From Phenylobacterium deserti (GTDB taxonomy: Bacteria > Pseudomonadota > Alphaproteobacteria > Caulobacterales > Caulobacteraceae): a stretch of 64,000 nt of DNA. Positions 53,058 to 54,880 of the stretch are shown piece after piece. Under the pieces are notes generated by a model that searched no databases, was not told the DNA's origin, and saw only the letters and a program-made list of their open reading frames with translations. The stretch is taken from positions 1 through 64,000 of the forward strand of contig CAMCXF010000001.1 in assembly GCA_945883235.1 (NCBI GenBank). Reading direction: 5' to 3'. The stretch's first letter is position 1; each line of letters starts with the position of its first letter. The position numbers were made by a program, and so were the translations under genes.

Positions 53058-53131
53058 GTACGATCAATCCACCCACCCCCGCACGACCGGTTCAACGGCG
53101 GCGGACAGGGTAAGTCGCGAGGAACGCCGCC

Positions 53132-54436
53132 ATGAACACCCATCTATCGTCCGCACTTGAAGCGGCCCGGTTCATCCGCGCCCAGAAGATCGACGGTCGC
53201 GCCAAGTGGCGGCGGAACGACGCGCCCGATGCTGGGTCGGACTACAGCCTCTACCATGGCTCCTGCGGCATCATTCTGTTGTTGCTGGAGCTGCATGCTG
53301 CCGGGCAGGACGCCGATGCGCTGGCCGAGGCCGTTGCTGCCGGTGAAGAGGTTCAGACCTATCTGCAGCGCAAGGACTGGCTGTCCGTCAGTCCCTCGAC
53401 CGGCTGGCCGGGCTATGCCTTCGCGCTGAACGAGCTGGCGCGCGCCAGTGGTCGGGACGACTTCCGCGCCACCGCCGCCATGTGCCTCGACCGGCTGCAC
53501 AGCCAGGCCACGAAACTGGGTGCCGGGATCGGCTGGATCGAGCCGATGCCGTTTTCTGAAATCACCGGCCTGAAGGGCGACCGGGAAATCTATGACCAGT
53601 CGGTGGGGGCTGCCGGGGCGGGGCTGATCCTGCTCTACGCCCACGAGCAGGCGCTGCATCCCTCAGCTCTCGACCACGCCATCGCCGTCGGCGAGCGGTT
53701 ACTGGAGGTCTCAGAGACCGATCCGGACGGCTTGCGCTGGCGGATGATGAGCGACATGCCGTTTGAGTTCACCGCGCCGAACTTTGCCCATGGCGGCGCT
53801 GGTGTCGGCTATTTCCTGCTGCAACTGCACCGCGCCACCGGCGAGGCCCGCTATCTGGACGCGGCGCGCGAGGCGGCCCGCTACACGATGAGCCGCGCGA
53901 CGGCGGCAGGACCATCAGGCCGCCTCATCTGCCACACCGAGGAAGCCCGGAAACCGATCTTCTATCTGGGAGCCTGTCATGGGCCCGCCGGCACCGGTCG
54001 GCTTTTGCTGGAACTTCACGACGTGACCGGTGAAAGCCAGTGGCTCGACGCCGCACGCTCCCTGGTCGACGGCCTGATCTCTACGGGCGCACCCGAGACC
54101 CGGTCAAAGGGCTTCTGGAACAACCACGGCCAGTGCTGCGGCGACGCGGGCGTCGGCGATTTCGCTCTGCTGATGGCCGCTCGCACCGGCGAGGCCGCCT
54201 ATCGCGACCTCGCGGCCCGCTGCGCCGACGTGATCGTCGCCAACTCCGAACTGAAAGACGCCGGACGACACTGGCGGCACGCCGAACACCGCGACCGGCC
54301 TGAGTTCCTGCAGGCCCAGACCGGCTACATGCAGGGTGCCGCCGGCATCGCCAGCTTCCTGCTGCATCTAGCCACGACGGATGCCGGGACGCCGGTGAAG
54401 ATTGCCATGCCGGACTGGCCGAGGGCGAAGGTCTAG
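53132..54436 (+). CDS. Stand-alone LanC-like (lanthionine synthetase C-like) protein
   Basis: Repeated toroid motifs YHGSCGI, FAHGGAGVGYFLLQLHRATG, YLGACHGPAGTGRLLLELHDVTG, HGQCCGDAGVGDFALLMAARTG, MQGAAGIASFLLHL. Confidence 0.85.
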   Translation: MNTHLSSALEAARFIRAQKIDGRAKWRRNDAPDAGSDYSLYHGSCGIILLLLELHAAGQDADALAEAVAAGEEVQTYLQRKDWLSVSPSTGWPGYAFALNELARASGRDDFRATAAMCLDRLHSQATKLGAGIGWIEPMPFSEITGLKGDREIYDQSVGAAGAGLILLYAHEQALHPSALDHAIAVGERLLEVSETDPDGLRWRMMSDMPFEFTAPNFAHGGAGVGYFLLQLHRATGEARYLDAAREAARYTMSRATAAGPSGRLICHTEEARKPIFYLGACHGPAGTGRLLLELHDVTGESQWLDAARSLVDGLISTGAPETRSKGFWNNHGQCCGDAGVGDFALLMAARTGEAAYRDLAARCADVIVANSELKDAGRHWRHAEHRDRPEFLQAQTGYMQGAAGIASFLLHLATTDAGTPVKIAMPDWPRAKV

Positions 54437-54520: not shown

Positions 54521-54880
54521 TCAAGTCCGCCGATGACGATCCTGGAGGTTTGGTGCGGAGCTGCCTTTTGCGGGATCTACAATTATCCGGACAGGTCTTC
54601 CATCAAGCGGCCAGCAAAATACCCCTCGCGCGTCCTTGGTGCGCCAAGTGTAAGCATAACCACGATTGTCGATCTGCCCGACCTTACATCGGTACATTTG
54701 GCTCGGCATTTGGCTGCGCTGAACGTTCGCGTCGGGATGTCCCGCGTCAGCCAATGCTCTGCGGACAGCAGCCAATCGGTTTTCGCTCGGCCGGTTGAAT
54801 ACGCCAACCATGATCGAAAGTGTGGAGATTACGAAGAGCCACCCCAGCAAACTCAGCGGTCGGTTAGGTGTCAGGTTCAT
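54521..54880 (-). CDS. Small hypothetical protein with one TM/signal segment
   Basis: MNLTPNRPLSLLGWLFVISTLSIMVGVFNRP...GQIDNRGYAYTWRTKDARGVFCWPLDGRPVRIIVDPAKG. Confidence 0.6.
   Translation of the reverse strand: MNLTPNRPLSLLGWLFVISTLSIMVGVFNRPSENRLAAVRRALADAGHPDANVQRSQMPSQMYRCKVGQIDNRGYAYTWRTKDARGVFCWPLDGRPVRIIVDPAKGSSAPNLQDRHRRT

What the first reader, a model, noticed from the sequence alone, without database searches (positions are those of the whole stretch)
53132..54436. Stand-alone LanC-like protein with a Cys-Cys-Gly zinc motif and no visible partners
Seen: LanC-type repeats with GACHGPAG and GQCCGDAG. In canonical LanC/LanCL the second site is Cys-His-Gly; here His is replaced by Cys, giving a likely three-Cys zinc site. 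Established: a CCG-type three-Cys site is known in the ProcM group of LanM enzymes, linked to broad substrate use. No LanB/LanM dehydratase and no convincing precursor peptide lie nearby. Inference: an orphan cyclase or glutathione-adding enzyme acting on unknown substrates, possibly dehydroamino-acid-damaged proteins as proposed for eukaryotic LANCL.
Basis: partly seen in the sequence, partly recalled or inferred. Interest (0 to 1): 0.6.

Follow-up and report, generated by a model that had tools for sequence, protein, structure and literature searches.

The report
Stand-alone three-cysteine LanC-like zinc enzyme
This gene encodes a conserved, free-standing relative of the enzymes that stitch sulfur bridges into peptide antibiotics; it keeps their predicted metal site and key catalytic residues but has no partner genes and no peptide to work on, so a whole bacterial branch of this enzyme fold has an unknown job.

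Summary
ORF 53132-54436 is a LanC-fold protein (PF05147, 122 bits; AlphaFold pLDDT 91; best PDB folds are lanthipeptide cyclases and LanCL1/2) with predicted zinc ligands Cys282, Cys335, Cys336. It is under strong purifying selection (dN/dS 0.043). It occurs in 24 of 101 genomes of its genus (Phenylobacterium by named relatives) and in marine gammaproteobacteria, nearly always as the only LanC domain. No LanM/L/KC synthetase, HopA1 dehydratase, conserved neighbour or conserved small ORF accompanies it; the LanB negative lacks a positive control. A tree places it in a well-supported stand-alone Cys3 clade (98/99) with Streptomyces, Nonomuraea, Mesobacillus and Lachnospiraceae proteins, apart from ProcM-type LanM. 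It keeps general-acid His220 and Asp155 but not three testable LanCL1 glutathione contacts, so the LANCL analogy is weak; other bacterial stand-alone CHG proteins fit it better. In all six Lachnospiraceae loci read, relatives sit beside cysteine-synthase-like genes, hinting at small-molecule sulfur chemistry there. Best reading: a zinc-thiolate addition enzyme with an unknown, non-lanthipeptide substrate. New variant of a known kind; biochemistry untested.

The parts
53132..54436 (+). stand-alone LanC-like protein, 434 aa (P0001)
   Evidence: PF05147 122 bits; AF2 pLDDT 91.2, pTM 0.92; PDB fold matches led by lanthipeptide cyclases; dN/dS 0.043
53119..53124 (+). GAGGAA, ribosome-binding-site-like sequence 7 nt before the ATG
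   Evidence: read from sequence
53594..53596 (+). Asp155, in the YDQSVGAAG motif; proposed equivalent of NisC Asp141
   Evidence: invariant in 28/28 orthologs; lost together with His220 in the four His-less relatives; equivalence inferred from the D-x3-G register
53789..53791 (+). His220 in NFAHGGAG; equivalent of the general acid NisC His212 / LanCL1 His219
   Evidence: 28/28 orthologs, 20/24 of the wider clade; role from PMC9934072
53975..53977 (+). Cys282, predicted zinc ligand 1
   Evidence: 24/24 conserved; in register with CuvL, PDB 8CAR
53978..53980 (+). His283, equivalent of LanCL1 His277 / NisC Tyr285
54092..54124 (+). clade-specific loop P321..G327-x-W329-N-N just before the CC motif
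   Evidence: P321, G327, W329 24/24 in the clade; W329 column empty in LanM, LanL and CHG stand-alones
54134..54139 (+). Cys335-Cys336, predicted zinc ligands 2 and 3 (Cys-Cys-Gly)
   Evidence: 24/24 conserved; in register with the QCCG of CuvL

Best explanation
A free-standing, catalytically intact LanC-fold enzyme with a Cys3 zinc site. Zinc held by Cys282, Cys335 and Cys336 binds a substrate thiol and makes it a thiolate; the thiolate adds to an electrophilic C=C (dehydroamino acid or similar unsaturated carbonyl); His220, helped by Asp155, protonates the enolate, and His283 contacts the carbonyl. It does not serve a clustered lanthipeptide and does not use the LanCL glutathione pocket; the thiol and acceptor are unknown. 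Shown by sequence and model: fold, conservation of these residues, stand-alone status, absence of LanM/L/KC partners. Inferred: zinc binding, thiolate chemistry, substrate class.
For: PF05147 match; LanC fold by AF2 and Foldseek; Cys ligands 24/24 and in register with solved CuvL; Asp155, His220, His283 invariant across alpha and gamma orthologs; roles of these residues from PMC9934072 and PMC10604976; dN/dS 0.043; the only LanC domain in its own genome, in 23 of 24 genus genomes that carry it (the other has two fragments) and in 12 of 13 gamma genomes; no DUF4135, no HopA1; no conserved neighbour or small ORF; glutathione contacts not kept.
Against: No biochemistry and no zinc shown. In the sister group (Mesobacillus, Nonomuraea, part of the Lachnospiraceae, L097) the Cys3 site stays while His220 and Asp155 are both gone, so the chemistry of the clade may not be classical thia-Michael addition throughout. 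NisC Arg280 and the Trp before the first Cys are not kept in this family (Tyr278, Ala281; the Arg280 comparison rests on my own knowledge of NisC). The loop next to the site has low model confidence (residues 325-328).
Confidence: 0.52

Rival explanations
1. Bacterial LANCL: adds glutathione to Dha/Dhb formed in damaged proteins.
For: Stand-alone, housekeeping-like selection, His283 equals LanCL1 His277 as in eukaryotic LanCL; LanCL1/2 among the best fold matches.
Against: LanCL1 His274, Lys317 and His323, all glutathione contacts, are Gly280, Asn330 and Cys336. The same clade is found in Streptomyces, Bacillaceae and Lachnospiraceae, which generally do not make glutathione (general knowledge). 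Present in only about a quarter of the genus, odd for proteome repair. Other bacterial stand-alone proteins (L106, L110-L112) fit LANCL better.
Confidence: 0.14
2. Orphan cyclase acting in trans on lanthipeptide precursors dehydrated by an unlinked enzyme, as ProcM acts on unclustered precursors.
For: Cys3 site is linked to a more active enzyme with many unclustered substrates in Prochlorococcus (PMC11251773); catalytic residues intact.
Against: No LanM, LanL or LanKC in the genome, no HopA1, no LanB found (control silent), no conserved small ORF beside the gene; clade separate from LanM-CCC.
Confidence: 0.1
3. A carbohydrate-active (alpha/alpha) barrel enzyme such as a GH127-type glycosidase, which also uses a three-Cys zinc site.
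For: Weak PF07944 match, 27.7 bits; further GH88/GH76/GH127 cross-matches in the Lachnospiraceae relatives.
Against: The PF07944 stretch (227-253) does not cover the Cys motifs; GH127 is not in the 50 best fold matches, which are led by LanC proteins; the Glu-x-Cys of GH127 (from my own knowledge) is absent; PF05147 scores 122 bits.
Confidence: 0.06

Closest known systems
CuvL cyclase domain (PDB 8CAR/8CAV, lanthipeptide synthetase)
   Same: best PDB fold match, same Cys ... QCCG motif in register
   Different: CuvL has further synthetase domains; here the cyclase is alone, with an extra W329 loop; in the tree CuvL (partial sequence) groups with LanL
ProcM-type (Type IIa, D-CCC) LanM cyclase domains
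   Same: Cys-Cys-Cys triad (PMC11251773)
   Different: no DUF4135 domain, no precursor, separate clade with 98/99 support
Eukaryotic LanCL1/LanCL2 (glutathione addition)
   Same: stand-alone LanC fold; His219 and His277 equivalents kept
   Different: Cys-Cys-His triad in LanCL; glutathione contacts His274, Lys317, His323 not kept here
Class I LanC (NisC, MadC)
   Same: stand-alone LanC fold, His212 equivalent
   Different: no LanB or precursor found; Cys3 instead of Cys2His
Proteins annotated 'lanthionine synthetase LanC family protein' on Streptomyces, Georgenia and Mesobacillus plasmids
   Same: same Cys3 clade and the same W loop
   Different: 28-39% identity; some lack His220 and Asp155; equally uncharacterised

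Membership tests
LanC-like superfamily (PF05147) | profile score over curated cut-off | tested here: met
   122.4 bits against 23.2
LanC-like superfamily (PF05147) | LanC double alpha-barrel fold | tested here: met
   pLDDT 91.2; CuvL, MadC, LanCL2, LanCL1 top the PDB list, query-normalised TM-score 0.61-0.68
LanC-like superfamily (PF05147) | zinc triad positions filled by possible ligands | tested here: met
   C282, C335, C336, in sequence register with CuvL; metal geometry in the model could not be inspected
LanC-like superfamily (PF05147) | zinc actually bound | not testable with these tools
   needs purified protein
Class I lanthipeptide cyclase LanC | partner dehydratase LanB | tested here: inconclusive
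   PF04738 not found in own genome or 21 orphan-bearing genus genomes, but no searched genome gave a match over the cut-off
Class I lanthipeptide cyclase LanC | precursor peptide gene nearby | tested here: not met
   no flanking small ORF conserved in L031; the stretch between LanC and the next gene does not align; no shared small ORF over genus loci
Class II-IV synthetases (LanM, LanL, LanKC) | cyclase fused to a dehydratase | tested here: not met
   434-aa stand-alone ORF; only one LanC domain in the genome; DUF4135 absent, control rings
ProcM-type LanM (D-CCC) | Cys3 triad | tested here: met
ProcM-type LanM (D-CCC) | falls in the LanM-CCC clade | tested here: not met
   stand-alone CCC clade apart, 98/99
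LANCL glutathione transferase | His219 and His277 equivalents | tested here: met
   H220, H283
LANCL glutathione transferase | glutathione contacts His274, Lys317, His323 | tested here: not met
   G280, N330, C336; Arg4, Arg364, Asp367 and Glu374 could not be placed
LANCL glutathione transferase | adds glutathione to Dha/Dhb | not testable with these tools
   needs assay
GH127 zinc glycosidase | profile match over the Cys zinc motifs | tested here: not met
   PF07944 best stretch is 227-253 only; not among the top folds

The most novel reading that the evidence does not exclude
The stand-alone Cys3 LanC clade is a family of small-molecule sulfur enzymes: zinc-activated thiols are added to unsaturated amino-acid-like acceptors (for example those made by PLP enzymes), not to peptides. 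The hint is that every Lachnospiraceae locus examined carries the LanC gene beside or one gene from a cysteine-synthase-like gene, twice also with a cystathionine-gamma-synthase/lyase-like gene, and one member of the window's own family overlaps a cystathionine gamma-synthase ORF.
Probability: 0.22. Interest if true: 0.75.

Novelty: new variant of a known kind. Interest (0 to 1): 0.5.

Why it matters
LanC chemistry is known in two settings: peptide cyclisation and glutathione addition to damaged proteins. A coherent bacterial clade with Cys3 zinc ligands, near-invariant active sites and no dehydratase, precursor or LanCL glutathione pocket would be a third setting. PMC11251773 lists Cys3 cyclases only with dehydratases (three clades), so a dehydratase-free Cys3 clade would add a fourth. 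The link to cysteine-synthase-like genes in Lachnospiraceae makes the substrate question directly testable. It also warns annotators: 'lanthionine synthetase' is probably the wrong name for these proteins.

Tried and rejected
Conserved operon partner in alpha and gamma: none; recurring neighbours (IlvD/Asp-Glu racemase; lipoprotein plus TylF methyltransferase; MFS) follow local synteny of related genomes, not LanC. The 118-138 aa upstream protein looked like a possible substrate but carries a lipobox (LSAC) and stays with its own lineage. Spread by viruses: none found. Plasmid hits gave relatives but no shared neighbour. GH127 idea rejected. The PNAS 2012 tree of lanthipeptide synthetases is not held. 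No paper on stand-alone Cys3 LanC proteins, or on LanC beside cysteine synthase, was found.

Full report
OBSERVATION. The window holds a 434-aa ORF at 53132-54436 (+) with GACHGPAG and GQCCGDAG exactly as described. Pfam gives LANC_like at 2e-35, 122 bits. NCBIfam's nearest models are LanL, LanM and LanKC, all far below their curated cut-offs, so it is none of those named enzymes. Selection is strong: dN/dS 0.043 against the closest relative, like the neighbouring Nramp gene at 0.053.

GENOME CONTEXT. The genome holds no other LanC domain. This by itself excludes LanM, LanL and LanKC, which all carry one. DUF4135 is absent from the own genome and 21 further orphan-bearing genomes of the genus, while the same search rings in four LanM genomes. 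HopA1, the class V-type dehydratase relative, is absent with a ringing control. LanB PF04738 is not found, but no genome tried gave a match over the cut-off, so this negative is uncontrolled. Of nine small ORFs in the unoccupied DNA around the gene, none is conserved in L031, whose LanC is 93.5% identical, and the stretch between LanC and the next gene does not align there. No small ORF is shared beside LanC across genus loci; the flanking matches seen follow synteny groups.

DISTRIBUTION. In the genus (Phenylobacterium by the names of matching records) 25 of 101 genomes have a LanC match. One (G025) is a LanM; the other 24 carry this family, with measured identities between 62 and 94%. The gene sits in several unrelated places. 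In a scan of GTDB contigs the family also occurs in marine gammaproteobacteria at 46-55% identity, with distant relatives in Lachnospiraceae. In 12 of 13 gamma genomes it is the sole LanC domain. Neighbours in gamma are diverse and unshared. The presence is patchy, and the gene appears to move or be lost alone (inference).

STRUCTURE AND ACTIVE SITE. AlphaFold gives pLDDT 91.2 and pTM 0.92. Foldseek ranks CuvL, MadC, LanCL2, LanCL1, plant GCR2 and LicM2 first. CuvL has the same Cys ... QCCG pattern, aligned in register. Over 28 alpha and gamma orthologs C282, C335, C336, H220, H283 and D155 are invariant. PMC9934072 assigns the H220 equivalent (LanCL1 His219, NisC His212) to enolate protonation and the H283 equivalent (His277) to the substrate carbonyl. 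PMC10604976 names Asp141 and His212 of NisC as acid-base residues; D155 as the Asp141 equivalent is my inference from the D-x3-G register.

NOT A LANCL. PMC9934072 lists LanCL1 glutathione contacts Arg4, Lys317, His274, His323, Arg364, Asp367 and Glu374. The three that lie at fixed distance from the Cys motifs are not kept here: Gly280 for His274, Asn330 for Lys317, Cys336 for His323. Proteobacterial CHG stand-alone proteins L106, L110, L111 and L112 do keep the Lys (KGS-x2-CHG), so LANCL-like bacterial proteins exist, but they are another group.

A SEPARATE CLADE. A tree of 43 LanC domains puts 24 stand-alone Cys3 proteins from alpha, gamma, Actinomycetota and Bacillota in one clade with 98/99 support, apart from LanM-CCC, LanL and CHG stand-alones. 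The members were found by homology to this protein, so sampling of other stand-alone LanC groups is limited, and some branches are long. The clade signature is P321, G327 and W329 in an extra loop before the CC motif, with W381 and (23 of 24) R387. In four members His220 and the acidic residue at 155 are lost together while all three Cys stay; one of these (L097) begins with a twin-arginine signal (RRQFLRG). PMC11251773 describes Cys3 triads in three bacterial clades, each with a dehydratase; this clade has none. Among proteobacterial LanM in my sample CCG is common, but the other stand-alone proteins from the same sample of 399 genomes are not Cys3.

A LEAD ON FUNCTION. Two Lachnospiraceae genomes hold several Cys3 stand-alone LanC genes. 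All six loci read (L094, L095, L135, L138, L139, L140) have a cysteine-synthase-like gene (PF00291; NCBIfam cysKM, below cut-off) next to or one gene away from LanC on the same strand; L138 and L140 also have a Cys/Met PLP gene of the cystathionine gamma-synthase/lyase type. The two genomes look related, so this is perhaps four independent arrangements. In the window's own family one locus (L045) has a cystathionine gamma-synthase ORF (TIGR02080, over its cut-off) overlapping the LanC stop. Streptomyces, Georgenia, Nonomuraea and Mesobacillus loci and the window show no such gene beside LanC. This suggests sulfur amino-acid chemistry on small molecules in at least one branch; whether the window protein shares it is unknown.

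MECHANISM. Most likely: zinc on three Cys binds a thiol as thiolate, which adds to an unsaturated acceptor; His220 and Asp155 protonate. Three Cys should make a more negative, more reactive site than Cys2His (an established idea for the ProcM type). Shown: fold, residues, conservation, orphan state. Inferred: zinc, chemistry, substrate.

VERDICT. The finding is real, and the orphan status is real and family-wide. The LANCL/glutathione reading is disfavoured. It is a new variant of a known kind with an open substrate question.

Noticed in passing
L138 6090-13345; L139 3362-5842; L135 755-3207; L140 1976-6383; L094 7299-10478; L095 7308-10470: In Lachnospiraceae, Cys3 stand-alone LanC genes lie beside cysteine-synthase-like genes, often with SDR, LysR and cystathionine gamma-synthase/lyase-like genes.
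   Followed up: partly
L045 8969-11480: LanC ORF overlapped by a cystathionine gamma-synthase ORF on the same strand in a Caulobacteraceae MAG.
   Followed up: partly
L143 33-1535 (same gene as L097): Relative with a twin-arginine signal and no general-acid His: an apparently exported Cys3 LanC-like protein.
   Followed up: no
L106, L110, L111, L112: Proteobacterial stand-alone CHG LanC proteins that keep the LanCL1 Lys317 position: better candidates for a bacterial LANCL. L112 has lost the first zinc Cys (QHYHG).
   Followed up: partly
L002 (genome G025): One genome of the same genus carries a class II LanM with DUF4135 and a CCG triad instead of the orphan protein.
   Followed up: no
L069; L073: Records titled Klebsiella pneumoniae and Acidimicrobiales MAGs hold family members 68% and 56% identical to the window protein; probably misnamed or contaminated bins.
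   Followed up: no
window 54521-54880 (-): 119-aa ORF with no Pfam match between LanC and a thioesterase gene, not conserved in the nearest relative.
   Followed up: partly
L138 7400-8788: Tandem second LanC-like gene whose first motif is CGGP instead of CHGP.
   Followed up: no
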